Under the pieces are notes generated by a model. The model did no database searches, was not told the DNA's origin, and was given only the letters and a program-made list of their open reading frames with translations. A stretch of DNA of 64,000 bases from Paracoccus aminophilus JCM 7686 (GTDB lineage Bacteria > Pseudomonadota > Alphaproteobacteria > Rhodobacterales > Rhodobacteraceae): positions 248,001-312,000 of the forward strand of contig NC_022049.1 in the NCBI RefSeq assembly GCF_000444995.1, in the 5' to 3' direction. The stretch's first letter is position 1. Every line of letters starts with the position of its first letter. A program made the position numbers and the translations under genes. Below, in pieces: positions 6,743-52,995 of the stretch.

Positions 6743-6743
6743 C

Positions 6744-31940: not shown

Positions 31941-32129
31941 ATGACGAAAGACACTTTCGACACCCATGTCTTCGACATTGCCGGAGACGATCATCTGGAC
32001 CTCTTCGCTGAAGAGCTTCCCGAACAAGTGCAACTGCTGTCCGACTGCCTCAGCTCGGCAAGTTCGGCAAGCTGCTGCACCTGTACGGGCAGCTTCGGCT
32101 CGGTTGGGTCTGTGATCAGCTGCGGCTAA
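31941..32129 (+). CDS. RiPP precursor peptide (azole/dehydroamino-acid type)
   Basis: A 62-residue peptide with the leader/core split expected of a modified peptide. Residues 1-35 are acidic (DTHVFDIAGDDHLDLFAEEL) and resemble thiopeptide leaders with their VFELAD-like motif. The C-terminal part is built only from Cys, Ser, Thr, Gly and small hydrophobics: DCLSSASSA followed by SCCTCTGSFGSVGSVISCG. Five Cys, twelve Ser and two Thr (residues 34-62) are candidate sites for azoles and dehydroalanines. GGAGG lies nine bases upstream of the ATG. It is the first gene of the cluster, separated from the rest by a putative hairpin. The exact leader cleavage point cannot be read; after Ser34 or Ala43 are both plausible. 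Confidence 0.85.
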   Translation: MTKDTFDTHVFDIAGDDHLDLFAEELPEQVQLLSDCLSSASSASCCTCTGSFGSVGSVISCG

Positions 32130-32148
32130 GCAGATCAGCCAAAACGAA

Positions 32149-32194
32149 CGAGAGATAACCATTCGTCTTTTACAAGGCGCATGATCATCTCTCG
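32149..32194 (+). promoter_or_regulatory. possible attenuator hairpin after precursor
   Basis: CGAGAGAT and ATCTCTCG flank a 30-base loop between the precursor stop and the sulfur-carrier gene. Such a structure could make the small precursor transcript more abundant than the downstream enzyme mRNA. The long loop makes it a modest prediction. Confidence 0.4.
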
Positions 32195-32362
32195 CCGCGA
32201 TGGCTTGGCTGGCGGATCTGTTTTCGAGACCGAATCCGTCAGCCTCCACACATATTCTTCATACCATAGCACGATATAAAAGTCCACTGATTCCGCTTTT
32301 GCGGGCTCGGAGAAGTTTTCCCAAAAGGCGGCGAAATCCCGCCCATGGAAGGAGAAGTTCCG

Positions 32363-32641
32363 ATGCAGATTACAATCGAAGTGCCATCCGGATTACGCCA
32401 ATATTGTAATGGCGCGCGAGAAATCAGAGTCTCCGATTCCACGAATTTCCCTACAATGATCATGCAATTGTCGGCGCATTATCCCGGCCTGACCCGACGC
32501 ATTGTTGCCCCTGGTGGCGGATTTTATGACTTCGTCGGTGTCTTTCTCAATCAGAAAAGTCTCGCCGGAACGGCCTCGGACGAAATCAAGCTTCAGGACG
32601 GTGATGTGGTCTCATTGATCCCCGCAATGGCGGGAGGCTAA
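32363..32641 (+). CDS. MoaD/ThiS-like sulfur-carrier protein
   Basis: A 92-residue ubiquitin-fold protein. MQITIEVPSGLRQYC starts the first strand, followed by STNFPTMIMQLSAHYPGL, VGVFLNQKS and DEIKLQDGDVVSLIPAMAGG; the protein ends exactly in Gly-Gly, the C-terminus that E1-like enzymes adenylate and thiocarboxylate. Its gene is followed one base later by an E1-rhodanese fusion. The role inferred here is to deliver sulfur as a C-terminal thiocarboxylate to the TfuA/YcaO pair encoded 16 kb downstream in the same cluster. An ATG six codons earlier overlaps the AAGGAG ribosome site, so the later ATG is correct. GC is lower than average. Confidence 0.85.
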   Translation: MQITIEVPSGLRQYCNGAREIRVSDSTNFPTMIMQLSAHYPGLTRRIVAPGGGFYDFVGVFLNQKSLAGTASDEIKLQDGDVVSLIPAMAGG

Positions 32642-32642
32642 G

Positions 32643-33767
32643 ATGGGACATTTCGACCGGATTGGTGGACGGCGCCCGAAGATCGGGAGCCTCAACCCGC
32701 AGCAATTCGCGCGCTACCGTCGGCAACTCATCCTCGATCAGATCGGTGTTGGCGGCCAACTCGCGCTGACGAGATCGCGGGTTCTGGTGATCGGCACAGG
32801 CGGTCTGGGCGCGCCCGCACTTCTCTATCTTGTCGCGGCGGGGGTCGGACAGATCGTCCTCGTTGATTTCGACACAGTCGATGAATCCAATCTGCACCGC
32901 CAAATTCTCTTTGCAGAACAAGATATTGGCCGCGCCAAAACGCTGGCCTCACAGGAGCGCCTGGGCGCGCTCAACAGCGACGTCGAGATCGTCGTAATCG
33001 AAGAGCGGTTGAGCGACGACAATGCCCGAAGCATCATCCGCGACTGCGATGTCGTGGTTGACGGCACCGATAATTTCCGCGCCCGCTACGCGATCAACGA
33101 CGCAGCCGTCGCGGCGGGGATCCCGATTGTATCCGCGTCGGTCATGCAGTTCGAAGCCCAACTAAGCGTGCTCGATCCCGCCGCGGGCGGTCCCTGCTAT
33201 CGCTGTCTCTATCCCAATGCTCCGCCACCCGATTTAGCGCCAAGCTGTGCAGAAGCCGGAGTCGTTGGGGTATTGCCCGGCATTATTGGCTGCCTGCAAG
33301 CGAATGAGGTTATCAAGCTGATTTGTGGTTTCGGCAGGCCAATGATCGGGCGTCTGCTGACCTTTGAAGCGACAGAAACCACGTTTCGCGAATTCGCAAT
33401 TCGCCGCCGAATGGATTGCCCCTGTTGCGCTGAAGTGCAGCCCCGGCTCCCGCGTGAAACTCACCGCGAGGTGACCGAAATCTCCTGCGCCGAGTTACGC
33501 GAACTTCTGGGCGAGAACAGGGCCTTGACGCTTCTTGATGTGCGGGATGAGAATGAACGCATCTACCGTATCGCCGCATCTCAAGGCATTCCCCTTAGCG
33601 AAATCATCGACCGACTGGCCGAAATCCCCAAAGACCGCGCTATCATTTGCATTTGCCAAAAGGGCAAACGCTCGCATCTGGCCGCGCAAATATTGATGTC
33701 CGCCGGGTTTACGGAAGTTTACAGCGTCAAAGGCGGTATGGATGAATGGGGGCGCCGCAATGCGTGA
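32643..33767 (+). CDS. E1-like ThiF/MoeB protein with rhodanese domain
   Basis: A 374-residue sulfur-activating enzyme. Residues about 20-265 are the adenylating domain: VLVIGTGGLGAPALLYL, LVDFDTVDESNLHRQ, DGTDNFRARYAIND, the Cys of PSCAEAGVVGVLPG near 201, and zinc pairs CYRC and CPCC. Residues about 280-374 are a rhodanese with LLDVRDENERIYRIAASQGIP and active loop CICQKGKRSHLAAQIL (Cys of CQKGKRS near 336), ending GGMDEW. This is the complete MoeBR/MOCS3 architecture, able to adenylate the adjacent carrier's Gly-Gly and transfer persulfide sulfur. Its inclusion in a peptide cluster points to sulfur supply for peptide modification. Confidence 0.9.
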   Translation: MGHFDRIGGRRPKIGSLNPQQFARYRRQLILDQIGVGGQLALTRSRVLVIGTGGLGAPALLYLVAAGVGQIVLVDFDTVDESNLHRQILFAEQDIGRAKTLASQERLGALNSDVEIVVIEERLSDDNARSIIRDCDVVVDGTDNFRARYAINDAAVAAGIPIVSASVMQFEAQLSVLDPAAGGPCYRCLYPNAPPPDLAPSCAEAGVVGVLPGIIGCLQANEVIKLICGFGRPMIGRLLTFEATETTFREFAIRRRMDCPCCAEVQPRLPRETHREVTEISCAELRELLGENRALTLLDVRDENERIYRIAASQGIPLSEIIDRLAEIPKDRAIICICQKGKRSHLAAQILMSAGFTEVYSVKGGMDEWGRRNA

Positions 33768-33778
33768 CACGGCGATAT

Positions 33779-33931
33779 TTACCCCTTTCGCGATTTCGTC
33801 GCTGCCCAGATTGCAACGGCAACACCCACGCCGACCGCAATCGAGACGCCAGCATTGCTTGAACGCGACATGGCCAAGGCCACAGCAAGGCCAACAGCTA
33901 TCGCAACAGCCGTCGAGGTTGATCCGCGCAT
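33779..33931 (-). CDS. 50-residue two-helix membrane protein
   Basis: On the strand opposite to the cluster, a frame with a good ribosome site (AAGGGAGAACACG then ATG) encodes 50 residues: TAVAIAVGLAVALA forms one hydrophobic segment, a polar MSRSSNAG turn follows, then VSIAVGVGVAVAIWAA and a basic tail KSRKG. The two small-residue helices suggest a membrane hairpin. Its stop is 12 bases past the E1-rhodanese stop, so the genes converge. Possible roles are immunity to the product, a small membrane regulator or a helper of the exporters; none is shown by the sequence. Small size keeps confidence moderate. Confidence 0.5.
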   Translation of the reverse strand: MRGSTSTAVAIAVGLAVALAMSRSSNAGVSIAVGVGVAVAIWAATKSRKG

Positions 33932-34028
33932 CGTGTTCTCCCTTCGCTGACAGGAACGGCTTTTCCCGTTTCCGTCGGCGAGGCTAGCACGGACGCTTTT
34001 CGTCTACCACCGACCCAAGGAGGTCCCA

Positions 34029-35048
34029 ATGACCCCGAGAACCGGCCTTTCCACGCTCGCCTATTCCGCCCCGCATATTCAGGATTCCGAGAGCCTTGCC
34101 GCAACAGAAAACCGCCCCTTCGCGATTAAAACATCGAACCTTTTCAAGACCTACCGAAATGGCGGTAAAGTCGTCGATGCTCTGGGCGGGGTGGAACTCG
34201 CAGTCGAGCGTGGCGAGTTCATCGGCGTGCTTGGTCCGAATGGTGCAGGCAAAACCTCGCTCATCGAAATCCTCGAAGGGATCCGTCAACCCGATCAAGG
34301 CGAGGTCGAGGTTTTGGGAACAAAGGTGCAGGATCAAAAGGCCATGCAAAAGGTCCGGGCTCGGATCGGGATCGCGCTGCAACATTCGGTTCTTCCCCCC
34401 TTAACCACAGTCGCCGAGCTCTTGTCATTCCAGCGCGGGCTTTATGACAGCAAAGTCGATCCCGAAATGATCATGGACCTTGTCGGGCTCAGCGATCAGC
34501 GTGCCAAGCGGGTTGGCGGCCTGTCGGGCGGGCAGCAGCAACGCGTCGCGATTGCGATGGCTTTGATGGGCGATCCCGATCTGATGTTTCTCGACGAGCC
34601 CACATCGCAACTCGATCCCCATGCCCGGTTGGCGCTTTGGGAAATCCTCTATGCACAGCGCAACCGCCGCAACACATCGGTGCTGATCACCACCCATCAG
34701 ATGGAAGAGGCGCAGCGGATCTGTGACCGCGTCTTGATCATCGACAAGGGCAAGATCATTGCCGAAGGCGCGCCGAACGATTTGATCCGCCGCCATTTTC
34801 GCCATCGCCGCGTCTATTTCGTGACCGCGGGCGATGTGCAGATAGAGACCAGCCAGAGCGATCATCAGGTCATCCAGCTTCGCGACGGGCGCGCCCAACA
34901 TCAGATCCTCTCGAGCGCGCCGCTAGAGATGCTTGCAGAGATGTCCGCGCGATATGGCGACAAGCTGACCGAAGTCAGCATCGCTGAGCCGACGCTTGAA
35001 GATCTGTTCTTGAAACTTACCCCACATGCAGCCCGGAGGGTTCAGTGA
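34029..35048 (+). CDS. ABC transporter ATPase (ABC-2 exporter)
   Basis: A 339-residue DrrA/CcmA-type ATPase: GPNGAGKTSLIEILEG (Walker A, near 74), LSGGQQQRVAIAMAL (signature), LMFLDEPTSQLDP (Walker B) and THQMEEAQRICDRV (H-loop). A 40-residue polar N-terminal extension and a C-terminal dimerisation-type region (about 260-335) flank the core. AAGGAGG precedes the ATG. Its stop overlaps the start of the permease gene (TGATG). Together they should export the mature peptide or confer self-resistance. Confidence 0.88.
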   Translation: MTPRTGLSTLAYSAPHIQDSESLAATENRPFAIKTSNLFKTYRNGGKVVDALGGVELAVERGEFIGVLGPNGAGKTSLIEILEGIRQPDQGEVEVLGTKVQDQKAMQKVRARIGIALQHSVLPPLTTVAELLSFQRGLYDSKVDPEMIMDLVGLSDQRAKRVGGLSGGQQQRVAIAMALMGDPDLMFLDEPTSQLDPHARLALWEILYAQRNRRNTSVLITTHQMEEAQRICDRVLIIDKGKIIAEGAPNDLIRRHFRHRRVYFVTAGDVQIETSQSDHQVIQLRDGRAQHQILSSAPLEMLAEMSARYGDKLTEVSIAEPTLEDLFLKLTPHAARRVQ

Positions 35049-36145
35049 TGTCGCGCAGCCGGATCCTTGCCTTAATGCAATCGCAATTCATCGAGATGCG
35101 CCGCGATTTCGGCGCGATGTTCCTGACGTTCCTGTTCCCGCTGTTTTTCGTCGTGATCCTGACCGGCTCGGCGCTGGTGCGATCCAATCCAACTTTTGAC
35201 TTCGGCTTTGTCGATCAGACCAAAAGCGCCGAGGCCCAGCAATTCGCCGATGCGCTTGCCTCGCAAAATATCGCAATCAAAACCTATTCCGACGAGGCCA
35301 CCCTTCGGTCCGCGCTCACGCGGCGCGACGTGACGGCCGCCGTGATCCTGCCCGAGGGCTGGACTCCCACGGCGACAGGCCCGCGCGTGCGCGTCGTCGC
35401 GGATACGACGACGGCGGGCCTTGCGGAAACCGTGGTGAACGCCGCCCGCGCCAAAATCAAGTTGGGCCAAGGCGAGACGGCCGATGCCATCCCGTTTGAG
35501 ATGACGACGGTCGAAGGCAGCAATGCCGAATTCAACTTCATCTATCCCGGGATGCTCGCGCTGGCCTTGGTGCAGATGGGGCTATTCATGACCGCGACGC
35601 CGATCCTGAAGGCGCGCGAACGCGGAACGCTGCGCTACATCCTGCTCACGCCGACCACCACGCGAGAGCTGGTCGTCAGTCAGGTCCTGTTCCGCGTCCT
35701 GATCGCCAGCGTCCAACTCACGCTGCTGCTTGCTGCTGGCGCGTTCATCATAACGCTCAGCCCAAGCGCCTGGCTTGCGACCTTCGGGATCTCGATCCTC
35801 GGCACTATCATGCTGGTGAGCATTGGCTACGCCCTTGCCGGGATCGCGCGCAGCACCGAAAGCGGCATGGCTTTGATCATGATCGCCAATTTTGCGATGC
35901 TCTTTGGCGGCAATGTCTTTTGGAACCCAGAGGGCTCGGCGGTCCTGACGGCGGTCGCGCGGATCATGCCCGTCAGCTACCTCGCCGATGCCTACCGCCA
36001 GATCATCAGCGGAGCGCAGGGTCTTTGGCCGATCTGGCAAGACATCGCCATGATGCTCGGCTTCACGCTGCTGGCGCTGCTGATCGCCAATCGCACCTTC
36101 ACTTTCGACATGCGCAGTCGTGACGTTCAGGCTCAGCGCGCCTGA
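35048..36145 (+). CDS. ABC-2 type permease
   Basis: A 365-residue ABC-2 membrane subunit: one N-terminal transmembrane helix (FGAMFLTFLFPLFFVVILTGS), a long external loop of about 130 residues containing DQTKSAEAQQFADAL and LPEGWTPTA, then five C-terminal helices (from FIYPGMLALALVQMGLFM to the end). ATPILKARERGTLRYILLTPTT is the typical cytoplasmic gate. A GTG one codon upstream is an alternative start. Partner of the preceding ATPase. Confidence 0.86.
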   Translation: MSRSRILALMQSQFIEMRRDFGAMFLTFLFPLFFVVILTGSALVRSNPTFDFGFVDQTKSAEAQQFADALASQNIAIKTYSDEATLRSALTRRDVTAAVILPEGWTPTATGPRVRVVADTTTAGLAETVVNAARAKIKLGQGETADAIPFEMTTVEGSNAEFNFIYPGMLALALVQMGLFMTATPILKARERGTLRYILLTPTTTRELVVSQVLFRVLIASVQLTLLLAAGAFIITLSPSAWLATFGISILGTIMLVSIGYALAGIARSTESGMALIMIANFAMLFGGNVFWNPEGSAVLTAVARIMPVSYLADAYRQIISGAQGLWPIWQDIAMMLGFTLLALLIANRTFTFDMRSRDVQAQRA

Positions 36146-36186
36146 AACCCTCAATGCATCACACCAAAACCAAGAGGAGTCTGAAG

Positions 36187-37122
36187 ATGAATGTCGAAGC
36201 AACGCCTCAGATCCCCAATCCCTCTGACTGGGTCTATTTGCGTCTGTATCTGGGCGCCGCGATGGACCGGATGGACTGGCTGCTCATCGAGATCCAGAAG
36301 CTCGTCAACGCCAATCCCCGCATCGGGCGCTGGTTCTACATCCGATATGTCGATGACGGCGGGATACATATTCGTCTCCGCGCGCAGGCCTTGCCCGAGG
36401 ACGCGGCCAGGCTTTCCATCGAATTGAATGATGGCGTCGCCATGATCCTCGCGCGGATCAGCAGCCAGCCGCCCGGCAATTATGCCCCGATGGTCGCGGC
36501 CCCCGGCTATACCGAGCAGATCGAGACACTGTCGATCGCCCATAATGACATTCGCCTCAAGCTGACCACCTACGAGCCCGAATATGACAAATTCGGCGGT
36601 CCGGTCGGGATGCCGATCGCCGAAGAGCTGTTCCATGTCTCCTCGGAAATCGCCTGCGATCTCTTGCAGGCAGAGGCTGTGGGCCAACTCTCGCGCAAGT
36701 CAGTGCTGCCCGCCCTCATGCGCGCTTGTTTTGACGCCTTCCAACCGCAGACCGACCCCGTCGTCTTTTGGCGCGAATACGCCTATTACTGGCTGGGCAG
36801 CAAAACGCCCGCCGCCGAGGATTGGCGCGATCGCTTCCGTCGCAAAGCGGAAGAACTCGACGCATCCGGCATCTCGACCTTCGATCCAGATCCCCGGATC
36901 CGCGCGCTGACCCAGCCACTAATCGCGCGCTGGACCGAAGCGCTGGGACAGGCCGCGTCCGCCTATGCGGCAGCGGGCACCACGACCGACGCCGATGCCG
37001 AGGTGCTGACCTTCAACATCGCGCATCTCATGAACAACCGCTTGGGTATCGCGGTCCTCGAGGAGGCTTACATTGCCTCCCTTCTTGAGGGCGCGATCGC
37101 GCGGGAGGCGCTGGCCGCATGA
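36187..37122 (+). CDS. LanB-type elimination domain protein (thiopeptide-type dehydratase C-domain)
   Basis: A 311-residue protein of the 'thiopeptide-type bacteriocin biosynthesis' (SpaB C-terminal) family. Hallmarks: WVYLRLYLGAAMDRMDWLL at the start, RWFYIRYVDDGGIHIRLRAQ, YEPEYDKFGGPVGMPIAEELFHVSSEIACDLL and a C-terminal LMNNRLGIAVLEEAY. In split LanB systems such a domain removes glutamate from glutamylated Ser/Thr to give dehydroalanine/dehydrobutyrine; the same fold is also used by thiopeptide [4+2] pyridine synthases. As the only copy beside a LanB glutamylation protein, elimination is the likelier role. AAGAGGAG supports the start used. It overlaps the YcaO gene by ATGA. Confidence 0.85.
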   Translation: MNVEATPQIPNPSDWVYLRLYLGAAMDRMDWLLIEIQKLVNANPRIGRWFYIRYVDDGGIHIRLRAQALPEDAARLSIELNDGVAMILARISSQPPGNYAPMVAAPGYTEQIETLSIAHNDIRLKLTTYEPEYDKFGGPVGMPIAEELFHVSSEIACDLLQAEAVGQLSRKSVLPALMRACFDAFQPQTDPVVFWREYAYYWLGSKTPAAEDWRDRFRRKAEELDASGISTFDPDPRIRALTQPLIARWTEALGQAASAYAAAGTTTDADAEVLTFNIAHLMNNRLGIAVLEEAYIASLLEGAIAREALAA

Positions 37123-38462
37123 CCCCTCAGATGGATCTGGACGACGCAAAGCTGCGGGCGCGCCATTCAGTGTGGCGGCTGCTGATGCCCTCAGGTGGGA
37201 TCATGTCGGGCGTCACCCGCATGACCGGCGAAAACGGCGCGCCGGACCTGCATATCGCCGTGAGCAAGCTTGGAAATCTTTCCAAGGTCTTTCCCCATGT
37301 CATCCGCCCCGACGGCACCGAGGTGGCGAATGAACCGCTTGGCGGAGCCGGTGCGGATCTCGACGAGGAACTCGCCTGGATCCGCGCGGTGATGGAAGGG
37401 GCCGAGCGCTACGCCAACATGGCCTATGCCCCCGAGGATTTCCTCGTGACCTCTGCCAATCAGCTTGGCGCGGCGGCGATCGACCTCGACCGGATCGCGC
37501 GCTGCTCGAAAGCCGAGCTGGCGCAACCGGGCTGCCCCTATATCGCCCCGGACAAAAGCGAGGCGATCCGCTGGACGCGCGGCTGGTCGCTCAGCCAGAA
37601 ATGCGAACGCTGGGTGCCGACCGTCATGACGCATCTTTATGCGCGTCCCGCCCGCAACGAGCGGTTCTGGCAGGAAATTTCCACCGGGGTTGCCGCGCAT
37701 TTCTGCCTGCAAACCGCGATCGTCTCGGCTCTGTGCGAGGTCATCGAACGCGACGCCATCTCGATCCTGTGGCTGGCGCGTTTGGGCTTGCCCAAAATCC
37801 AGATCGATCGCCCCGCCCCCCCTGCCCTCGCCGGAGAGCTTGGCCAGCTCGAGCGGTCACTGATCAATCAAAGCTTCTTTGATGCGACCAGCGATATCGG
37901 CGTGCCGACCGTCTATTCGCTGCAGCGTGTGCCGGGCCATCCCGCGACCGCGCAATATGTGAACTGTGCGACCGGCTTCGACCCCGCCGCCCTTTGTGCA
38001 AAGACCATTCGCGAGGCCGCGCCCGCGCGTCCCGTCCTGCGTCTGGTCGAGGACGTGCCCGCCGACAGCAACGACTTTCGCGCGCTGTATGACGGGGCCC
38101 ATCTTCTGGGCCGCCCTGAACACGAACCCGCCTTCGACTTTCTGACCCACAGCACACGTTCGGTCCTGTTGTCGCAGATGCTGCGCCCAGAGGCCGAAAG
38201 CCCGTCAGAGCGGCTGAGCTACATCGTCGCCCGGCTGGAGGCGCTTGGCATGGAGCCGGTGATCGTCGATCTGACAACCGACGAATTGCGCGACCTCGGC
38301 ATCTGGGTCGTGCGCGCCGTCATTCCGGGGCTGATGCCGATGAGCTCGGTCCAGAAGGGCCGCTTTCTCGGAACGCCACGCCTTTACGACTACCCCGCAA
38401 AAGCCGGCTTCGGAACGCTTTGCGAAGCCCAGATCAACCCTTTGCCGCAGCCATTCGCATGA
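37119..38462 (+). CDS. YcaO cyclodehydratase (azoline-forming)
   Basis: A 447-residue YcaO-domain protein of the thiazole/oxazole maturase type. The ATP-binding elements are LGGAGADLDEELAWIRAVME, GAERYA and ISTGVAAHFCLQTAIVSALC, EVIERDAISILW, followed by the CATGFDPAALCAKTIREA segment. It ends NPLPQPFA, a weakened form of the Pro-rich C-terminus that matters for catalysis in azoline-forming YcaO proteins. It should phosphorylate the peptide backbone and cyclise Cys (and possibly Ser/Thr) of the precursor. It is translationally coupled on both sides: to the elimination protein and to the E1-like partner protein. Confidence 0.9.
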   Translation: MTPQMDLDDAKLRARHSVWRLLMPSGGIMSGVTRMTGENGAPDLHIAVSKLGNLSKVFPHVIRPDGTEVANEPLGGAGADLDEELAWIRAVMEGAERYANMAYAPEDFLVTSANQLGAAAIDLDRIARCSKAELAQPGCPYIAPDKSEAIRWTRGWSLSQKCERWVPTVMTHLYARPARNERFWQEISTGVAAHFCLQTAIVSALCEVIERDAISILWLARLGLPKIQIDRPAPPALAGELGQLERSLINQSFFDATSDIGVPTVYSLQRVPGHPATAQYVNCATGFDPAALCAKTIREAAPARPVLRLVEDVPADSNDFRALYDGAHLLGRPEHEPAFDFLTHSTRSVLLSQMLRPEAESPSERLSYIVARLEALGMEPVIVDLTTDELRDLGIWVVRAVIPGLMPMSSVQKGRFLGTPRLYDYPAKAGFGTLCEAQINPLPQPFA

Positions 38463-39124
38463 CACGCATCCTGTTTCTCGCTCTTGGAGAGTTCGGTCAC
38501 GCCGTAGCAACCCGCGCGGCAAAGGCCGAGGACCAGATCACCGCTTTTCCGCTGGACGACCCCACCGGTCTTGCGACGATGGTCGAGGCCGCCGAGTTCA
38601 TCGCCGTCGCCGCCTTCCGGCCCTACCCCGAGGCCTTTCACGCGCTCAACAGCCTTTGCAATGCGCTTGCAAAGCCGTGGTCGCTCGCTGAACTCAGCGG
38701 GACACGCCTGACAATCGGCCCCTTGGTGATACCGGGCGGCAAGGGGTGCTATGCCTGCTACCGCAAGCGCCGGGGCACGCATTACCCGACCCCAGAGCGG
38801 GAAGCGGCGCTTGAGGCCCACTATCTTTACCGCCCCGAAACAGGTCCGCGCGGCTATTCCCCACCCGCCGCAGCCTTTGCGGCCGCAGCACTGCGCCACG
38901 ATGCCGAAACGGCGCTGGGTGAGGGTCGGGCGGCTCTTGATGCCGCGGGCGGCCTGCGGGTCGCGGACATGCTTACGGTCACAGTACTCGAAAGCGCAGT
39001 GCTGCCCGTTCATGCCTGCCCCCATTGTTTCCCCGCCTCCGGTGCAGGCGAAATCGGCGCGCGCTTCGTGAATTGCCTCGTGCCAGCCCTTCAGGAGCCA
39101 GCCCTTCAGGAGAATGCAGGATGA
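38459..39124 (+). CDS. E1-like cyclodehydratase partner protein
   Basis: A 221-residue protein of the kind that accompanies YcaO and dehydrogenase in azole clusters (C/F-protein, Ocin-ThiF-like). It starts with a Rossmann-like strand MTRILFLALGEFGHAVATRA; a zinc site is visible as CYACY near residue 100 and CPHC near 195. It lacks the ATP-site GxGGLG of true E1 enzymes, so it is probably a scaffold that presents substrate to YcaO. Its last codons are a perfect duplicated 15-base unit (39083-39112, encoding PALQE twice). Both ends overlap neighbours by ATGA. The frame is open upstream inside YcaO, but coupling supports this start. Confidence 0.75.
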   Translation: MTRILFLALGEFGHAVATRAAKAEDQITAFPLDDPTGLATMVEAAEFIAVAAFRPYPEAFHALNSLCNALAKPWSLAELSGTRLTIGPLVIPGGKGCYACYRKRRGTHYPTPEREAALEAHYLYRPETGPRGYSPPAAAFAAAALRHDAETALGEGRAALDAAGGLRVADMLTVTVLESAVLPVHACPHCFPASGAGEIGARFVNCLVPALQEPALQENAG

Positions 39125-45044: not shown

Positions 45045-45095
45045 CATCCCGCATTCAGATCACACTTCTTTCATCGACAGGAGTTTTAGGTAAAA

Positions 45096-45854: not shown

Positions 45855-45864
45855 GGAGGAAGCA

Positions 45865-47031
45865 ATGGCTGATCTCGCCCTCATCACCACCTATCTCAAA
45901 CAGAGCAAACTGCGAACCGCCTTCACTGCGGGTTCGATCATTGTCGCCTTCATCCTCTTGGGATTGTTCCTTCCGGTTCTGCGGGTCTTCGACTCGCGGG
46001 TGGATTTCGGCGATGCGGATCGGCTGATGGTCGTCAGCAAGACCTCGGTGATGACGCCGCTGCCCGTCGGTCTTGGCGAGCGGATCAAGCAAATCGACGG
46101 GGTGCGGGAGGTCAGTCATTTCACCTTCTTCGGGGGCACATACCGCGCCGCCTCGAACCGGATCGCCGCGATTGTCACCGACCCGGCACTCTTTCCGAAC
46201 ATGGTCGACGAGGTCGCCTTCAACGATTCCGAAGGCTATCGCCGCTGGCTGGCCGAGCCGGCGAGTGTCGCAGTCGGTCGCGAAATGGCCAATGCGCAAG
46301 GCTGGAAGGTCGGAGACCTGATCCCGATCCGATCGCTGATCTACATTCGCAAGGATGGCAGTCCAATCTGGACCTTTCGCATCGCGACAATCTTCGATCC
46401 CGCCACCAAGGATAGCGTGACCAATTCGATGGTCATCAATTACAGCTATTTCAATCACGAACGCAGCAGTGGCGCGGATACGGTCGGATGGTTTGCGGTC
46501 CGCGTCGATGACCCCCGTCACGCGGAAGCCGTCGCCGCGGCGATCGACAAGGCTTTCGCCAACTCGCCGAACGAAACCACGGCAACCACCGAGAAGGCCT
46601 ATGCGCAAAGCTTCCTGAAGCAGGTTGGCAACTTCAAGGCCATGATCACGGTGGCGCTGGCTTTGGTCTTCTGGACATTGATCCTGATTACCTCGAACGC
46701 GGTCATGCAAGGGATCCGCAGCCGGTTCAGTGACTTTGCCATCATGCGCACCCTTGGCTTTGCCTCGGGCCGCATCGCGAGGCTGATCTTTTCCGAGGTC
46801 GCCGTGCTGATGGCGGCGGCGGGACTGCTCGGCATGGCGATCGCCAATATCGTGGTCCTGATCGTCGCGACCCGAACCGACCAGCTTCTGTCTCTGATGC
46901 GGCTGGACTGGCGGGATTGGGCGATTGCCTTCGGGCTCATCACGCTTTGCACGCTCGTGATCTCGATCACGCCGATCGTCCAAGAGCGTCGCCAGAAAAT
47001 CATCAGCGGATTGGGAGAGGCGGTACAATGA
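45865..47031 (+). CDS. FtsX/MacB-like permease, first subunit
   Basis: A 388-residue permease: an N-terminal transmembrane helix (TAGSIIVAFILLGLFLPVLRV), a periplasmic domain of about 220 residues, then three helices starting at FKAMITVALALVFWTLILIT with MRTLGFASGRIARLIFSEVAVLMAAAG and ending near ISITPIVQERR. The topology fits MacB/LolC/E permeases. AGGAGGAAGCA precedes the ATG; the stop overlaps the next start (ATGA). Confidence 0.86.
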   Translation: MADLALITTYLKQSKLRTAFTAGSIIVAFILLGLFLPVLRVFDSRVDFGDADRLMVVSKTSVMTPLPVGLGERIKQIDGVREVSHFTFFGGTYRAASNRIAAIVTDPALFPNMVDEVAFNDSEGYRRWLAEPASVAVGREMANAQGWKVGDLIPIRSLIYIRKDGSPIWTFRIATIFDPATKDSVTNSMVINYSYFNHERSSGADTVGWFAVRVDDPRHAEAVAAAIDKAFANSPNETTATTEKAYAQSFLKQVGNFKAMITVALALVFWTLILITSNAVMQGIRSRFSDFAIMRTLGFASGRIARLIFSEVAVLMAAAGLLGMAIANIVVLIVATRTDQLLSLMRLDWRDWAIAFGLITLCTLVISITPIVQERRQKIISGLGEAVQ

Positions 47032-48218
47032 GCGTTATTCGTCAGATGATCACCTCGCTGCTGATCGCAGCCCTTAGCCTGCAGGGGCGGTTGTGGTCGT
47101 CCCTGAACACGGTGCTTGGCACAGCGGTCGTTGTCGCGGTCATGGTCGCGATCTTGTCCATCGGCGCGGGCTATCGGCAGGCGATGCAACTGTCCGAGGT
47201 CGAGGATAGCTGGATGATCCTGCGCGGCGGTGCGCAGTCCGAAATGGAAAGCACGCTCACCGCTGAAGAGGTGAGCCTCATCCAATCCAATCGCCGCAAT
47301 GGCCAGAGCTCCGATCAATCTGTGACCAGTTCGGAATCCTATGCCGTCGTGGCGCTTGATGGCCCGTCGGGCGCCTCGCTCAATGTCGCGCTGCGCGGCG
47401 TCGGCCCGGAGGCGCAAAAGTTGCGCGGTGATTTTCACATCATCGAAGGCCGCGACTTTACGCCAGGGCGGCGCGAACTCGTCGTCGGGCGCCGGGCACA
47501 GCAACATTTCGGCGGTCTTGCTCTGGGCGAAACCTTGCGCATTTCGGGTGCGAATTGGACGGTTGTCGGGGTTTTCGAAGCGGGCGGCAATATTTCGGAA
47601 TCCGAGCTTTGGACGGATCGCGGCATGTTGCAGCAGGCCTTGAACCGCGGAGACAACGTTCAAGTCGTTCTGACGCCCCGCCGCGACGGAGAAAGCGCGC
47701 TTGACCTTCAAAATGCCTTGAACCGCGACGGAAGGCTGAATGTGTCGGTCGTCAGCCGCAGGGATTATTATGCCGGACAGGCAGAAAACATGCAGCGCTT
47801 CGTGCGCATTCTGGGTTCGGTCATCGTCGCCCTGATGAGCCTTGGTGCCGTCTTTGCCGCGCTGAATACCGGATACAGCCACGTCAAATCCCGCGCGAAA
47901 GAGCTGGCAACCCTGAATGTGCTGGGCTGGACCAATGGCGCGCTCGCGCTGTCGATCGCGGCCGAGGCGGTCATTCTGAACCTGCTGGGGGCCTGCGTTG
48001 GCGTCGCCGTCAGCTATCTGCTCTTCAACGACAAACTCGTGTCGACGCTCTTTTTTGCCAATGACTTCACGCAGGTCGTTTTCACCTTCGCGGTGACGCC
48101 GCGAATTATGGTCGAGGCCGTCATCCTTGCCTTCATCATCGGGATCGCAGGCAGCCTTGGCCCGGCAATGCAGTTGCGCCGCCTGCCGGTCGCGCGCCTG
48201 CTCGTGCAACGCAACTGA
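47028..48218 (+). CDS. FtsX/MacB-like permease, second subunit
   Basis: A 396-residue paralogue-like partner of the preceding permease: N-terminal helix LNTVLGTAVVVAVMVAILSIG, a periplasmic MacB core-like domain (LRGVGPEAQKLRGDFHIIEG, RELVVGRRAQQHFGG, WTVVGVFEAGGNISESELW), then three helices including RAKELATLNVLGWTNGALALSI and LAFIIGIAGSLGPAMQLRRLPVARLL. Two different permeases imply a heterodimeric transporter. Immediately followed by the second YcaO gene. Confidence 0.88.
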   Translation: MSVIRQMITSLLIAALSLQGRLWSSLNTVLGTAVVVAVMVAILSIGAGYRQAMQLSEVEDSWMILRGGAQSEMESTLTAEEVSLIQSNRRNGQSSDQSVTSSESYAVVALDGPSGASLNVALRGVGPEAQKLRGDFHIIEGRDFTPGRRELVVGRRAQQHFGGLALGETLRISGANWTVVGVFEAGGNISESELWTDRGMLQQALNRGDNVQVVLTPRRDGESALDLQNALNRDGRLNVSVVSRRDYYAGQAENMQRFVRILGSVIVALMSLGAVFAALNTGYSHVKSRAKELATLNVLGWTNGALALSIAAEAVILNLLGACVGVAVSYLLFNDKLVSTLFFANDFTQVVFTFAVTPRIMVEAVILAFIIGIAGSLGPAMQLRRLPVARLLVQRN

Positions 48219-48230
48219 GGGAATGAGATC

Positions 48231-49469
48231 ATGCAGATCGCCGGTCAGGACCTTTCCGCGCAGAAAGCCTATTTCGACGGCACGCATCGACTCTGCGAGC
48301 CCGCCGAAACCATCGCCCGCGTCACCCCCCATCTGGCGCGGATGGGGATCACGCGGGTGGCGGATATCACCGGGCTGGACCGGATCGGCCTGCCTGTCAG
48401 TGTGGCGATCAGACCGAACGCGCGGGCGCTATCGACCTCGCAAGGCAAGGGTCGGACCCGAGAGGCCGCGCAGGCATCGGCTTTGATGGAATCGATCGAG
48501 GGCTGGCATGGCGAGCGCATCTCGCTGCCGCTGCGCATCGAGAGCTGGAACACGATGGCGTCCGAACGGGACCTGCCCGATCCTCTGGCCTTCGGTCTGC
48601 GCGCGGATGCCCATCTGGATCCGGCGCTGCCGCTGGTCTGGGCCAAGGTCTGGGATCTGATGACCGAGAGCCCTGCCTGGGTCCCTTATGAAACCCTCTC
48701 GACCGCCTTTGTCGAGAGCGAGGACCAGCGCCCGCTGCTTCTGAAGACGACGAACGGACTTGCCTCGGGCAACCATCTGCTGGAAGCCATCGTTCACGCA
48801 CTTTTCGAGCTGATCGAGCGCGACGCGCTGACCTTGGCCTCGCTTGCCCGCGCGCCACGGCGGTTCATTGCGCAAGACATGATCCCCGACCCCTATTTCC
48901 AGGCGCTCGCGGCGCGGCTCGACAAGGCCGGGATCGTGATGGTGATCGAGGATGTGACCAGCGATCTTGCTGTGCCGACCTTCACTTGCGAGATGATCGA
49001 CGACCCCCGTCGCGGCAATTGGCGCGCGCTGCCATCGGCGAGTGGGCATGGCACCCATTCTGATTTCACGGTTGCGCTCTCGCGCGCGGTCCACGAGGCC
49101 ATTCAAAGCCGCGTCACGATCATTTCCGGGAGCCGCGACGATCTGTTCCCCCATGACTATGCAGACGCGCTGAGCCTTGAGGCGCAACTCGCTTTGACGG
49201 AAGCGGCCAACAGGACACAAAGCTGGATGCCGCCGATTTTGCCGACGACGCACATGCGGTTCGAGGATGAGTTGCAAGCATTGCTCGACCGCTTGCGCGC
49301 TCTGGGCATCGATCATGCCTATCTGGCCGATCTCAGCCGCGACGACGTGGGGATCCCGGTCGTCAAACTGGTGGTGCCGGGGCTCGAGCCGCCGCGTAGC
49401 GCGGTTTACCGTCCGGGCGCGCGCGCCGCCAGCGTCACCGCAGCAGCCGCGAAAGGACGTCTCACATGA
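48231..49469 (+). CDS. second YcaO, TfuA-partnered (thioamide-type)
   Basis: A 412-residue YcaO protein. ATP-site elements are stronger than in the first YcaO: LSTSQGKGRTREAAQASALM, ESIEGWHGE, NGLASGNHLLEAIVHALFEL and IERDAL, with SRAVHEAIQSRVTIISGSRDD and VVKLVVPGLEPP later. It ends in KGRLT without a Pro-rich tail, as expected for YcaO proteins that are not azoline cyclodehydratases. It overlaps the tfuA gene by ATGA; YcaO-TfuA pairs are the established signature of peptide backbone thioamidation. The alternative is a trifolitoxin-like role, where TfuA also occurs. Confidence 0.88.
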   Translation: MQIAGQDLSAQKAYFDGTHRLCEPAETIARVTPHLARMGITRVADITGLDRIGLPVSVAIRPNARALSTSQGKGRTREAAQASALMESIEGWHGERISLPLRIESWNTMASERDLPDPLAFGLRADAHLDPALPLVWAKVWDLMTESPAWVPYETLSTAFVESEDQRPLLLKTTNGLASGNHLLEAIVHALFELIERDALTLASLARAPRRFIAQDMIPDPYFQALAARLDKAGIVMVIEDVTSDLAVPTFTCEMIDDPRRGNWRALPSASGHGTHSDFTVALSRAVHEAIQSRVTIISGSRDDLFPHDYADALSLEAQLALTEAANRTQSWMPPILPTTHMRFEDELQALLDRLRALGIDHAYLADLSRDDVGIPVVKLVVPGLEPPRSAVYRPGARAASVTAAAAKGRLT

Positions 49470-50818
49470 CCCGTCCAATCGTCATTTTCCTTGGCCCGAC
49501 CCTGCCTGTCGCCGAGGCGCGCCGCATCCTTGCCGCCGACTATCTGCCGCCCTGCCGCATGGGCGATATCTACCGTGTCACCCGCGACCTCGCTCCTGCA
49601 GCGATCGGCATCGTCGATGGCTATTTCGAATCCACGCCCGCCATCTGGCATAAGGAGATCCTGCACGCCTTGTCGCAAGGCATCCCGGTCTTTGGCGCAT
49701 CGAGCATGGGTGCGCTGCGCGCTGCCGAACTTGCCGCCTTCGGCATGGAGGGCGTTGGCCAGATTTTCGCCGATTTTGCTGCGGGGCGGCTGACCGATGA
49801 TGACGAAGTCGCGGTCGCTCATGCCACCGCCGAGGACGGCTATCGGCTGGCCAGCACCCCGATGGTCAACCTGCGTTTTGGCCTCGGTGCAGCGGTCGCA
49901 AACGGCGTGCTGACCGCCGATGAAGCCGCAACGATCATCGCGAGGCTCAAGGCCGCATATTACCCGACGAGATCTTGGGAGATGCTGTGGTCCGAGCGCG
50001 AAAACCTCGGACAATCCGCCGACAAACGCGTCAGGTTGCGCGAATTCATCGAGGCGGGTGATTTCGACCTCAAGCGTCAAGATGCCGTGCGGCTGCTCGA
50101 GCGTGTTCGGGGCTGGATCGCCGAAGGCAGCCCGCCGCATCGTGCAGATTTTAGCTTCGAGCCGACGATCTTCTGGGATCACATGCGCGAGCTGATTGAT
50201 ACAGAGAGCGGGTCAAACGGCCCCGGTGCGCAGCGCCTGTCCGAACATGTGCGGATTGCGGATCCCCGCAGACACGAGATGCTGCGCGAGGCGCTCGCCA
50301 ACCGGCTGATTGATCGCGAAGCGCGACGGATGCAGCTGGTCGTGACCGATGACCGCGCCGCGCTCACGCGCTTCCGCCAGGACCGCGGGCTCGCAAGCGC
50401 CCAGCAGCTTTCCGGTTGGATGGCTGCGAATGACATGGATGCCGATGCGTGCCTGCGCCTTGCGCGGCACGAGGAACTGGCGCGGATGATTGCGCGACGG
50501 GTCATGCCCGATCTCTTGAGCCGCATCCCCGACGTGCTGCGCCGCATGGGGGCCTATGAACAGGTCAAGACACAGGCCAACACCGTCGCCGCGGTGATGT
50601 CGGACCTCGGCATCACCTCCCCCTCGCCCGAACATGTGCCGGGCCTCGACGGTGCGCTTGACTGGTATCAAAGCCAGCAAGGCCCGGTGCAGCAGCCCCT
50701 CGACGATCACATTGCCGAACTTGGCTTCGGCAGTCGCCAGCAATTCACCCGTGCGCTGATAGCCTCGTATCTCGGCGCCCGTCAAAGGGAGGTCTCGCAT
50801 GATCCAGCAGCCATCTGA
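49466..50818 (+). CDS. tfuA: TfuA protein
   Basis: A 450-residue TfuA-family protein. The core domain is complete: IVIFLGPTL at the start, YLPPCRMGDIYRVT, IGIVDGYFESTPAIWHKEIL and GIPVFGASSMGALRAAELAAFGMEGVG. Lys63 (WHKEIL) and Ser79/Ser80 (GASSMG) are candidates for the Ser-Lys pair that, in work on the methanogen TfuA, hydrolyses thiocarboxylated ThiS to release sulfide for YcaO. A helical extension of about 220 residues follows (about 230-450) with no known domain and several basic/acidic helices; it is longer than minimal TfuA proteins. It overlaps the upstream YcaO and, by 20 bases, the downstream adaptor gene. Confidence 0.9.
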   Translation: MTRPIVIFLGPTLPVAEARRILAADYLPPCRMGDIYRVTRDLAPAAIGIVDGYFESTPAIWHKEILHALSQGIPVFGASSMGALRAAELAAFGMEGVGQIFADFAAGRLTDDDEVAVAHATAEDGYRLASTPMVNLRFGLGAAVANGVLTADEAATIIARLKAAYYPTRSWEMLWSERENLGQSADKRVRLREFIEAGDFDLKRQDAVRLLERVRGWIAEGSPPHRADFSFEPTIFWDHMRELIDTESGSNGPGAQRLSEHVRIADPRRHEMLREALANRLIDREARRMQLVVTDDRAALTRFRQDRGLASAQQLSGWMAANDMDADACLRLARHEELARMIARRVMPDLLSRIPDVLRRMGAYEQVKTQANTVAAVMSDLGITSPSPEHVPGLDGALDWYQSQQGPVQQPLDDHIAELGFGSRQQFTRALIASYLGARQREVSHDPAAI

Positions 50819-52055
50819 GCAACCCGCCCAGCCCAACTCAGAACAGCCCAACTCAATACAGCCCGACTCCGCACAGCCCGACTCGGCACAGGGCTTCACG
50901 AAGTTGGACAAGGTGGAACGAGACCGAATTGGCACGGTTCTGGGCAACATGCGCCGCAATGACCCCCTGCCCGCACCTCAGCCAAGCCGTCGTCGCAATC
51001 TGTTGCTCTTGCCGCTTTGCGCGATTGCCGTGGCCGGGATTTATCTGGGCACGGGCGCGCGGAGAGATGGCGCCGAGGTCGTAAGACCGGCGATGGCCGC
51101 GACGCTTGCGACCGCCCCCGTCGCTGCACCCGTGGCTGCCCCCCCCGCTGCACCCGTCGCTGAAACGACCTCCCCCCAGCCGACATCGGCGCCAATCGCC
51201 TCGGCCAATTCAGCGACACCCGCGAACGAAACGGCAAAGACGGTCGAGCCACCCAGCGCGCAAATTGCGCTCGAGGCTTCGGGGACCGTGGTTGCCAAGC
51301 GGGTCGCGACCGTATCGTCAAGCGTCACCGGGCGGCTTGCCAAAATCCTTGTCGAAGAGGGTGAACATGTCACCGAGGGCCAACCCATCGCCCTGCTTGA
51401 CACCGAACAGGCCTTGCGCGCCACGCGCGGCGCCGAGGCACGGATGCGCGCCGCCGAAATCGCGGCTGAAGTCGCCGATGCAAAAGCCGTTCAGACCCGG
51501 ATCTCGCTCGACCGCACGAATGTCCTCGCCGATCGTGGGCTGGTGCCAAAGCAGCAATTGCAGGATGCGGTGGCGCTGAACAACGTCTCTCAAGCCGAGG
51601 TGCGCGCACAGCGCCAACAAATCGACGTTCAGCGCGAAGAGGTGGAGATCGCCCGACAGGCGATCGACGACGCCACCATCCGCGCGCCATTTTCCGGGGT
51701 CGTGACCGAGCTGAACGCCAATCTCGGCGAGATCGTTTCGCCGCTGTCCTCGGGAGGTTTTACCCGCACCGGTGTCGGAACGATTGTCGATTTTTCGTCG
51801 CTTCTGGTCGAAGTGGATGTGAGCGAACAATATCTCGACAAGTTGCGGACGAACCAAAAGGTGACGCTGACGACGCCAGCCTATCCCGACCTGACGCTGG
51901 ATGGACGCATCAAGCTGATCACACCAAACGTCGACCCCGCGACCGCAGCAATCAAGGTCTCGATCGCCTTCGACGCGCCAGATCCGAGGTTTTTCCCCGG
52001 TATGCGCGTTGACGCCTCTTTTCTCGCGCCCGACCGCACCGCGCGTGCGGATTGA
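50799..52055 (+). CDS. HlyD/RND-type periplasmic adaptor
   Basis: A 418-residue membrane-fusion protein. The cytoplasmic N-terminus consists of four 15-base tandem repeats (50829-50888; QPNSE, QPNSI, QPDSA, QPDSA). A transmembrane anchor (NLLLLPLCAIAVAGIYLGTG) near 70-90 and an Ala/Pro-rich linker follow, then the lipoyl halves (GTVVAKRVATVSSSVTGRL, LVEEGEHVTEGQPIALLDTEQ, DATIRAPFSGVVTELNANLGEIV), an alpha-hairpin, and the beta-barrel (VDVSEQYLDKLRTNQKVTL). It links the MacB-type transporter of this cluster to an outer-membrane channel encoded elsewhere. GGGAGG precedes the ATG. Confidence 0.88.
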   Translation: MIQQPSEQPAQPNSEQPNSIQPDSAQPDSAQGFTKLDKVERDRIGTVLGNMRRNDPLPAPQPSRRRNLLLLPLCAIAVAGIYLGTGARRDGAEVVRPAMAATLATAPVAAPVAAPPAAPVAETTSPQPTSAPIASANSATPANETAKTVEPPSAQIALEASGTVVAKRVATVSSSVTGRLAKILVEEGEHVTEGQPIALLDTEQALRATRGAEARMRAAEIAAEVADAKAVQTRISLDRTNVLADRGLVPKQQLQDAVALNNVSQAEVRAQRQQIDVQREEVEIARQAIDDATIRAPFSGVVTELNANLGEIVSPLSSGGFTRTGVGTIVDFSSLLVEVDVSEQYLDKLRTNQKVTLTTPAYPDLTLDGRIKLITPNVDPATAAIKVSIAFDAPDPRFFPGMRVDASFLAPDRTARAD

Positions 52056-52077
52056 ACCGAACCAGAAAGGGAAAGCC

Positions 52078-52995
52078 ATGAACGCAAGAAACCTGATTGC
52101 CGTGACATTGCTGATGAGCGGCACATTGATCTGGCAGCCTGTCCCTGCGCAGCCGAGCGTGACCACGGATACCAGCGAAAGCGCCGCCGCGGTCAAACCG
52201 GCCAGCAATATCGTGACAATGGACCGCATTTCCGTCGAAGTTCTGGGCGATCATGGACCCGATGTCATCCTGTTGCCCGGTCTGGCCACTCCGCGCGATG
52301 TCTGGAAAGGTCTCGCCGACAATCTGGCTGGAAAGGCGCGATTGCATCTGGTGCAGATCACCGGATTTGACGGCCAAGAGAGCCCGGTCAATGCCGCCGG
52401 AGGCCTGCTTCAGGGTGTCGCCGACGAAGTGGCCGCCTATGCCAAGGAAAACAAATTGGACCATCCGGCGGTGATCGGCCACAGCCTCGGCGGCACGGTT
52501 GCCTTGCTGTCGGCCTTGGACCATCCCGAGGCCTATAGCAAGGTGATGGTCGTCGACACCTTGCCGTTTCTGACGCTGCTCTTTGACGCCAACGCGACGG
52601 CGGCTTCGGCGGAGCCCATGGCCGAGCGCATGAAGACAATGATGGCCGCCGCACCTCAGGGAAAGGTCGATCCCGCGACCCTGCGCGGCATGTCCCTGAC
52701 CCAAGCCGGGCTGGATCAGGTCGAGACCTGGGTCGCGGCATCGCGCAACGAGGTGAGTGCGGAAGCGATGAAAGAGATGCTGACCTTGGACCTTCGCCCC
52801 CGCCTTTCATCTCTGAGCATTCCGATGGTATTGGTTTACCCCGAAAGCGCGCGCGCGACCGCGCTTTACACCGATCTCTATAAGCCTGTTCGCGATCACA
52901 AGCTTGATGGCATTGAGGGAACCGGTCATTTCGTCATGCTGGACCAGCCCGCCAACTTCGAGACCGCCGTGAAGCGCTTTCTGGATTTGCAGTGA
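52078..52995 (+). CDS. secreted alpha/beta hydrolase
   Basis: A 305-residue protein with a signal peptide (NLIAVTLLMSGTLIWQPVPAQ). The alpha/beta hydrolase fold shows DVILLPGLATPRDVW (oxyanion loop), VIGHSLGGTVALL with the nucleophile Ser near 138, VLVYPESARATALY (acid region) and GTGHFVMLDQP with the catalytic His near the end. It is the last gene of the cluster, 22 bases after the adaptor. Possible roles are trimming, hydrolysing an ester on, or detoxifying the exported peptide in the periplasm; the sequence does not decide. Confidence 0.85.
   Translation: MNARNLIAVTLLMSGTLIWQPVPAQPSVTTDTSESAAAVKPASNIVTMDRISVEVLGDHGPDVILLPGLATPRDVWKGLADNLAGKARLHLVQITGFDGQESPVNAAGGLLQGVADEVAAYAKENKLDHPAVIGHSLGGTVALLSALDHPEAYSKVMVVDTLPFLTLLFDANATAASAEPMAERMKTMMAAAPQGKVDPATLRGMSLTQAGLDQVETWVAASRNEVSAEAMKEMLTLDLRPRLSSLSIPMVLVYPESARATALYTDLYKPVRDHKLDGIEGTGHFVMLDQPANFETAVKRFLDLQ

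What the first reader, a model, noticed from the sequence alone, without database searches (positions are those of the whole stretch)
31941..52995. Hybrid RiPP cluster combining azole, dehydroamino acid and thioamide chemistry
Within 21 kb of co-directional, mostly overlapping genes I find a precursor peptide, azoline YcaO + E1-like partner + dehydrogenase, a split LanB dehydratase, and a separate YcaO-TfuA pair. Each module is known; TfuA-YcaO means backbone thioamidation in characterised systems, and LanB with azole enzymes means goadsporin- or thiopeptide-like maturation. All three modules plus a private sulfur relay in one alphaproteobacterial operon is a combination I do not know as a described product class. 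Trifolitoxin from Rhizobium is the nearest familiar relative in spirit.
Basis: partly seen in the sequence, partly recalled or inferred. Interest (0 to 1): 0.92.

Follow-up and report, generated by a model that had tools for sequence, protein, structure and literature searches.

The report
Three-chemistry modified-peptide gene cluster
A conserved bacterial gene cluster appears to make a small antibiotic-like peptide carrying three different chemical changes (rings, dehydrated residues and a sulfur swap in the backbone), with its own sulfur supply line; genome surveys have flagged the general type, but we found no described product.

Summary
From 31941 to 52995 lies one co-directional RiPP operon: 62-aa precursor, ThiS-like carrier, MoeB/ThiF-rhodanese, azoline YcaO with E1-like partner and RRE/dehydrogenase, split LanB (glutamylase plus one stand-alone PF14028), M50 protease, two ABC exporters and a YcaO-TfuA pair. 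It is a co-inherited unit: nine further genomes (alpha-, beta- and gammaproteobacteria) carry the core set, although gene order differs in four. The precursor is 75-88% identical in seven of the nine, where LanB is 39-48% identical; 81 precursor relatives were found. The single PF14028 protein keeps the elimination histidine where pyridine synthase PbtD has tyrosine, and no second stand-alone copy was found in ten genomes, so I predict a linear, goadsporin-like azole/dehydroalanine peptide plus thioamide, not a macrocyclic thiopeptide. ThiS with MoeB-rhodanese most likely feeds TfuA, a known sulfur route. My searches found no described linear product with all three. A new variant of a known kind.

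The parts
31941..32129 (+). precursor peptide, 62 aa; conserved leader LDLFAEELPEQVQLLSDC, Ser/Cys-rich C-terminal half
   Evidence: (NF033482 thiocillin family RiPP, 21.7 bits, cut-off 25)
32363..32641 (+). ThiS/MoaD-like sulfur carrier, C-terminal GG (start moved from 32345 by ribosome-binding site and relatives)
   Evidence: PF02597 36.6 bits; GG in 7 of 7 aligned
32643..33767 (+). MoeB/ThiF adenylyltransferase fused to rhodanese
   Evidence: (Cys338 in the rhodanese loop and Cys185/188/259/262 invariant in 7 of 7 aligned)
34029..35048 (+). ABC transporter ATPase (DrrA-like)
35045..36145 (+). ABC-2 type permease
36154..37122 (+). stand-alone PF14028 protein, predicted glutamate-elimination half of split LanB
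37119..38462 (+). azoline-forming YcaO (SagD family), C-terminus PLPQPFA
   Evidence: (TIGR03604 263.8 bits, cut-off 219.25)
38459..39124 (+). E1-like TOMM leader-binding/partner protein
   Evidence: TIGR03882 57.7 bits, cut-off 36.9
39121..41463 (+). 780-aa protein: weak PbtF-like RRE (39-103, E 0.05), SagB dehydrogenase and a second nitroreductase domain
41456..42514 (+). M50 metalloprotease with PqqD-like domain, candidate leader peptidase
   Evidence: scanned from 41459
42504..45044 (+). LanB glutamylation half (846 aa)
45096..45854 (+). MacB/LolD-type ABC ATPase
45865..47031 (+). FtsX/MacB permease 1
47028..48218 (+). FtsX/MacB permease 2
48231..49469 (+). second YcaO, thioamide type by its TfuA neighbour and relatives
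   Evidence: (TIGR00702 218.7 bits over cut-off; methan_mark_1 207.9, below its cut-off 365)
49466..50818 (+). TfuA, with an extra C-terminal helical region
50799..52055 (+). HlyD/MacA-type periplasmic adaptor for the MacB exporter
52078..52995 (+). alpha/beta hydrolase with signal-peptide-like start; matched in 5 of 10 genomes within the stretches held, all alphaproteobacterial, so probably accessory

Best explanation
The cluster makes a linear RiPP. (1) The leader (LFAEELPEQ region) is bound by the E1-like/RRE proteins [inferred]; the SagD-type YcaO turns some core Cys/Ser/Thr into azolines and the SagB-type protein oxidises them to azoles [families shown, reactions inferred]. (2) The LanB half glutamylates remaining Ser/Thr with Glu-tRNA and the single PF14028 protein eliminates glutamate to give dehydroalanine/dehydrobutyrine; without a pyridine synthase the peptide stays linear, as in goadsporin [inferred from anatomy and the active-site histidine]. 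(3) MoeB-rhodanese loads the ThiS-like carrier as a thiocarboxylate; TfuA releases its sulfur to the second YcaO, which puts one or more backbone thioamides into the same peptide [mechanism known in other TfuA systems, inferred here]. (4) The PqqD-M50 protease removes the leader and the MacB/FtsX/HlyD and ABC-2 exporters send the product out and protect the producer [inferred]. The product is most likely an antibacterial; its target is unknown.
For: Family assignments. Co-inheritance: precursor, ThiS, MoeB-rhodanese, PF14028, azoline YcaO, LanB, YcaO-TfuA, dehydrogenase, M50 and the ABC-2 and MacB/FtsX exporter genes in 10 of 10 genomes (window + 9), the E1-like gene and HlyD in 9 of 10 each (the missing ones would lie past a contig end), with order changed in the beta MAG, P. 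rubra and gamma MAGs G301 and G302. Precursor mostly under purifying selection. PF14028: His291 invariant in 8 of 8, aligned to the corresponding His of the NisB-like nasB, while PbtD has Tyr; NisB H961A abolishes dehydration (PMC4341554, passages; that His291 corresponds to H961 is inferred). The Arg pair HxRxR that aligns with NisB 784/786 is also invariant. One stand-alone PF14028 per genome in 10 of 10; P. rubra's extra match lies in a 1049-aa frame on another contig. TfuA Ser80 and Lys203 invariant in 6 of 6 aligned and in 6xp8. ThiS GG 7 of 7 aligned. ThiS-homologue + TfuA delivery stated in PMC13063428 (passage). One contrast: a related cluster on an Anoxybacillus plasmid has no TfuA on that plasmid and no ThiS or MoeB match in the 18.8 kb read.
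Confidence: 0.72

Rival explanations
1. A true macrocyclic, thioamidated thiopeptide (saalfelduracin/thiopeptin-like) in which the single PF14028 protein, or an unrecognised enzyme, forms the pyridine by [4+2] cycloaddition.
For: Precursor has a weak match to the thiocillin family model (21.7 bits, cut-off 25) and some relatives are named 'thiocillin family RiPP' by NCBI or UniRef; Foldseek ranks [4+2] enzymes among the top matches of the PF14028 model.
Against: Only one stand-alone PF14028 in 10 of 10 genomes; His291 as in elimination domains, Tyr in PbtD; core lacks the dense Ser-Cys pattern of thiopeptide rings (recalled).
Confidence: 0.13
2. The YcaO-TfuA pair and relay modify something other than this peptide (a host protein, or another peptide), and are only genetic neighbours.
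For: TfuA matches lie on 351 plasmid records, and in 5 of 5 neighbourhoods read there was no LanB or PF14028 match; the genome has a second pair on contig C1.
Against: The pair belongs to the set in 10 of 10 genomes across three proteobacterial groups despite rearrangement (in G303 it is on a separate contig), with ThiS-MoeB close to the precursor.
Confidence: 0.1
3. The ThiS/MoeB-rhodanese pair serves another use: a C-terminal thioacid on the peptide, or molybdopterin/thiamin sulfur supply.
For: ThiS-like proteins also serve molybdopterin and thiamin (general knowledge); the pair is not adjacent to TfuA in the window.
Against: The genome has two further ThiS-family genes on contig C1; apart from this pair the Pfam scans of the 18 proteins show no molybdopterin or thiamin genes; no ThiS or MoeB match beside the Anoxybacillus cluster, whose plasmid lacks TfuA; a ThiS gene accompanies TfuA in a Rhizobium cluster without a LanB match.
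Confidence: 0.1
4. The LanB half acts as a peptide aminoacyl-tRNA ligase that adds an amino acid instead of glutamylating Ser/Thr for elimination.
For: It is LanB-like without a fused elimination domain and lies outside Pfam's model.
Against: A stand-alone elimination-type partner is present in 10 of 10 genomes; closest solved relatives are 6ec7 and the goadsporin enzyme.
Confidence: 0.05

Closest known systems
Goadsporin pathway (GodA-H, Streptomyces)
   Same: azole enzymes plus split LanB (GodF/GodG) acting on one linear peptide (PMC5303826, passages); LanB half matches the goadsporin protein 9jhq; no [4+2] enzyme
   Different: its PTM genes as listed (godB, D-H) include no YcaO-TfuA or ThiS/MoeB; fused cyclodehydratase (PMC4603692, passage) and acetyltransferase GodH, neither seen here; actinobacterial
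Thioamidated thiopeptides (saalfelduracin, thiopeptin, Sch 18640)
   Same: azole + dehydroamino acid + YcaO-TfuA thioamide; LanB half closest to 6ec7, TbtB of thiomuracin by recall
   Different: they are macrocyclic and need a [4+2] enzyme; only one PF14028, of elimination type, here
TfuA clusters with azole enzymes and split LanB in the survey PMC8120280 (Figs 4C, 5C; figures not held, text and legends read)
   Same: same combination, proteobacterial members with thiopeptide-like precursors, MoeB, ThiS and thiopeptide F RRE among labels
   Different: bioinformatic only; Roseivivax, Paracoccus and Pseudoalteromonas not in the main text; no product described; whether these clusters are in its figures or supplement could not be seen
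Coryneazolisins (PMC4603692, passage)
   Same: azole + lanthipeptide-like dehydratase, no [4+2] protein, inferred non-macrocyclic
   Different: no TfuA mentioned in the passage read
Dehydrazoles (carnazolamide; PMC10676384, passages)
   Same: azole + Dha hybrids; one Nakamurella cluster adds YcaO-TfuA
   Different: dehydration by a LanM-like DUF4135 enzyme, long NHLP-like leader
Tha-1 thioamitide from Desulforegula (PMC9576775, passages)
   Same: a thioamidated RiPP made from a cluster the paper lists under Pseudomonadota
   Different: one thioamide only was observed; glycosyltransferase and methyltransferase in the cluster; no azole or dehydration reported in the passage

Membership tests
Azole + dehydro linear RiPPs (goadsporin-like) | YcaO cyclodehydratase + partner + dehydrogenase | tested here: met
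   YcaO and dehydrogenase in 10 of 10 genomes, E1-like gene seen in 9 of 10
Azole + dehydro linear RiPPs (goadsporin-like) | split LanB: glutamylase + elimination protein | tested here: met
   (by sequence; Arg826 of NisB is Lys here)
Azole + dehydro linear RiPPs (goadsporin-like) | no pyridine synthase | tested here: inconclusive
   one stand-alone PF14028 per genome with elimination-type His; a very divergent enzyme could be missed
Azole + dehydro linear RiPPs (goadsporin-like) | linear product with azoles and Dha | not testable with these tools
   needs mass spectrometry/NMR
Thiopeptide | [4+2] pyridine synthase | tested here: inconclusive
   no second stand-alone PF14028 in 10 of 10 genomes; fold alone cannot tell
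Thiopeptide | thiopeptide-type precursor | tested here: inconclusive
   NF033482 21.7 bits, below cut-off 25
YcaO-TfuA thioamidation | adjacent ycaO and tfuA with catalytic Ser-Lys pair in TfuA | tested here: met
   adjacent, overlapping 4 nt; PF07812 152.4 bits, cut-off 30; Ser80/Lys203 conserved; that these two are the catalytic pair is recalled/inferred
YcaO-TfuA thioamidation | thioamide in the product | not testable with these tools
   needs +15.977 Da by MS
ThiS-COSH sulfur relay to TfuA | ThiS-like GG carrier and E1/rhodanese encoded with TfuA | tested here: met
   both genes in 10 of 10 genomes; GG 7 of 7 aligned; rhodanese-loop Cys 7 of 7 aligned; sulfur transfer itself not testable here
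Trifolitoxin | tfx-type precursor and operon | not tested
   link is by the name TfuA only; the trifolitoxin genes were not compared
Dehydrazoles | LanM-like DUF4135 dehydratase | tested here: not met
   no DUF4135 among the Pfam matches of the 18 cluster proteins at E<=0.1; dehydratase is LanB-type

The most novel reading that the evidence does not exclude
An uncharacterised RiPP class of Gram-negative bacteria: linear peptides that carry azoles, dehydroamino acids and backbone thioamide together, made by a co-inherited set that includes a complete dedicated ThiS-E1-rhodanese-TfuA sulfur relay, with a product conserved from alpha- to gammaproteobacteria strongly enough to imply one conserved target.
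Probability: 0.55. Interest if true: 0.75.

Novelty: new variant of a known kind. Interest (0 to 1): 0.55.

Why it matters
A preprint (PMC13174530, passages) lists thioviridamide-like peptides, thiovarsolins, thioamidated thiopeptides and chimeric lanthipeptides as the YcaO-TfuA classes characterised before its own; a linear dehydro-azole thioamide peptide is not among them. Several carriers are cultured isolates (Roseivivax, Paracoccus onubensis, Pseudoalteromonas rubra; not known to me as pathogens), so it is directly testable. The self-contained sulfur relay could be a portable system for making thioamides, and the cluster a test of how two YcaOs and a dehydratase share the Ser/Thr/Cys residues of one peptide. 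The core's conservation across distant hosts suggests a common target worth finding.

Tried and rejected
Idea that some relatives lack TfuA: after three gamma loci (L010, L011, L012) showed no TfuA within the stretch held; longer stretches and a family search showed it in all three genomes. Rejected.

TfuA C-terminal region (about 235-443): Foldseek on the whole model gave only the known TfuA 6xp8 at E<=0.001; the region was not predicted alone, so nothing can be said of its fold.

Prevalence: the precursor profile found only the window genome in 385 alphaproteobacteria and in 398 Pseudomonadota, samples that overlap; the LanB profile found the window and 1 weak further match (E 5.2e-6, positions 711-840) in 295 same-family genomes. 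At most 16 candidates per listed genome were scored in the precursor searches and 3 in the LanB search, so these are lower bounds. The genome-contig scan used two peptide patterns only; 10 of 170 matching stretches were kept. No plasmid record held the precursor at E<=0.01. The distant Acidobacteria locus L013 (LanB residues 25-256 only) was left out of the counts; its genome has no TfuA match and was not searched for the precursor. Of the ten genomes, two are Paracoccus onubensis and two Roseivivax, so about eight lineages are independent; G295, G302 and G303 are split over contigs. The LanB alignment A1 used to find the loci contains some of the same proteins, so LanB presence itself is not independent evidence.

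Papers: searches; none listed holds both Roseivivax and thiopeptide. The library lacks most subscription papers. Liu 2021 on TfuA is not held; its content is recalled and supported by a passage in PMC13063428.

Full report
What is there. The region 31941-52995 holds 18 co-directional genes on the + strand; 9 of 17 junctions overlap. In order: a 62-aa precursor; a ThiS/MoaD-like carrier; a MoeB/ThiF-rhodanese fusion; an ABC-2 exporter pair; a stand-alone PF14028 protein; a SagD-type YcaO; an E1-like TOMM protein; a 780-aa protein with a weak PbtF-like RRE and two nitroreductase-type domains; an M50 protease with a PqqD-like domain; a LanB glutamylation half; a MacB-type ATPase with two FtsX permeases; a second YcaO; TfuA; an HlyD adaptor; and an alpha/beta hydrolase. 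The LanB half escaped Pfam and NCBIfam at E<=0.1 but matches 6ec7 (TbtB by recall; E 6.5e-20) and the goadsporin protein 9jhq (E 6.9e-16). The genome has 4.87 Mb in 6 contigs; the cluster lies on a 438-kb contig with a RepC gene near its start, so probably on a repABC plasmid or chromid (inference).

Is it one pathway? A LanB profile (19 proteins) found ten loci among the species genomes held: two Paracoccus onubensis, Roseivivax halodurans and sediminis, a betaproteobacterial MAG, Pseudoalteromonas rubra, two gammaproteobacterial MAGs, a Lysobacterales MAG and a distant Acidobacteria locus. Leaving the last out, the window and nine relatives carry the precursor (10 of 10), TfuA (10 of 10), PF14028 (10 of 10), and ThiS, MoeB-rhodanese, azoline YcaO, dehydrogenase, M50, LanB, the ABC-2 and MacB/FtsX exporter genes and the second YcaO (10 of 10 each, some cut by contig ends); the E1-like gene and HlyD were seen in 9 of 10 each, the missing one lying past a contig end. 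The hydrolase was matched in 5 of 10 within the stretches held, all alphaproteobacterial. Gene order differs in the beta MAG (precursor after MoeB), in P. rubra (precursor-ThiS-MoeB on the opposite strand beyond HlyD), in gamma MAG G301 (HlyD-MacB-FtsX-YcaO-TfuA divergent, two precursors) and in G302 (TfuA block upstream of the precursor). A set that stays together through such shuffles is a functional unit. About eight of the ten genomes are independent lineages.

The precursor. Identity to the window over the matched part is 75-88% in seven of the nine relatives and 58-61% in the other two, while LanB is 33-48% identical. From the leader motif to the end, 46 codons compared with P. rubra show 31 silent and 5 amino-acid changes, with differences mostly at third positions (34 against 8 and 5); Paracoccus gives 17 and 4, Roseivivax 17 and 5, the beta MAG 19 and 3, G301 23 and 8. 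G302 and G303, whose cores differ in length, give 22 and 17 of 43 and 9 and 25 of 44 without gaps. A protein search gave 81 relatives. All 82 including the window have the [SA]DCxS[ST] motif, and 75 of 82 the C-terminal GSxxS pattern used; 26 of 82 have the window's SCCTC core type. Other core types, with the same enzymes, occur in G301, G302 and G303. The family was not found in 384 other alphaproteobacteria or 397 other Pseudomonadota sampled: rare but scattered, which suggests horizontal spread (inference).

Thioamide and sulfur. TfuA matches the solved Methanosarcina TfuA (E 1e-35; Foldseek E 8e-13), with Ser80 and Lys203 conserved in 6 of 6 aligned. The second YcaO is closest in the PDB to MJ1094 and matches the McrA thioamidation model, though it and TfuA score below the equivalog cut-offs of the archaeal pair. 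ThiS ends in GG in 7 of 7 and the rhodanese-loop Cys is kept in 7 of 7 aligned. The genome has two further ThiS-family genes on contig C1, so this is an extra, cluster-bound copy. PMC13063428 states that organisms outside high-sulfide settings tend to use a thiocarboxylated ThiS homologue with TfuA (passage); PMC9576775 and PMC5589413 note ThiF/ThiS or moaD, moeB and rhodanese genes with or near YcaO-TfuA (passages). A natural contrast: an Anoxybacillus plasmid cluster with a similar leader (LELFAEELPEQ), LanB, PF14028 and SagB genes has no TfuA match on the whole plasmid and no ThiS or MoeB match in the 18.8 kb read. No YcaO match was seen in that stretch either, and the host's other replicons were not searched, so this one contrast is weak evidence; it fits the relay belonging to the thioamide module.

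Compared with what is known. The three chemistries together are known in thioamidated thiopeptides, and TfuA clusters with azole enzymes and split LanB were reported in a genome survey, with MoeB and ThiS among the labels (PMC8120280, sections 12 and 13 and passages). That survey's figures are not held, so I cannot say whether these very clusters are shown; the hosts found here are not named in its main text. A thioamidated peptide from a cluster listed under Pseudomonadota has been made (Tha-1, PMC9576775, passages). The YcaO-TfuA classes listed in PMC13174530 (passages) do not include a linear azole/dehydro peptide. Hence: a new variant of a known kind, with a well-supported family, a predicted structure class and clear tests, but no product.

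Noticed in passing
G000:C1:2886859-2888375 (L001; L057 about 7083-9949): A second, separate TfuA-YcaO pair in the same genome; its substrate is unknown, and LanB, ThiS and MoeB queries had no match within the 16 kb taken.
   Followed up: partly
49466-50818, residues about 235-443 of TfuA: TfuA here has an extra C-terminal region, predicted all-helical and present in the five aligned relatives, beyond the part matched by the archaeal structure; function unknown.
   Followed up: partly
L045 (Anoxybacillus amylolyticus plasmid pDSM15939_1): A thiocillin-family RiPP cluster with the same kind of leader but no TfuA on the plasmid and no relay genes in the stretch read; a natural comparison for what thioamidation adds.
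   Followed up: partly
L031 (G301:C2) 6633-6806 and about 7199-7372: The gammaproteobacterial MAG has two tandem precursor genes with slightly different cores, a possible two-peptide or two-product system.
   Followed up: no
G000:C5:613-1125: RepC near the start of the 438-kb contig carrying the cluster: it probably is a plasmid or chromid.
   Followed up: no
L048 (Rhizobium johnstonii plasmid pRlX2) 6505-12766: A Nif11-type precursor with two YcaO genes, TfuA and a MoaD/ThiS gene: another TfuA cluster with its own sulfur carrier.
   Followed up: no
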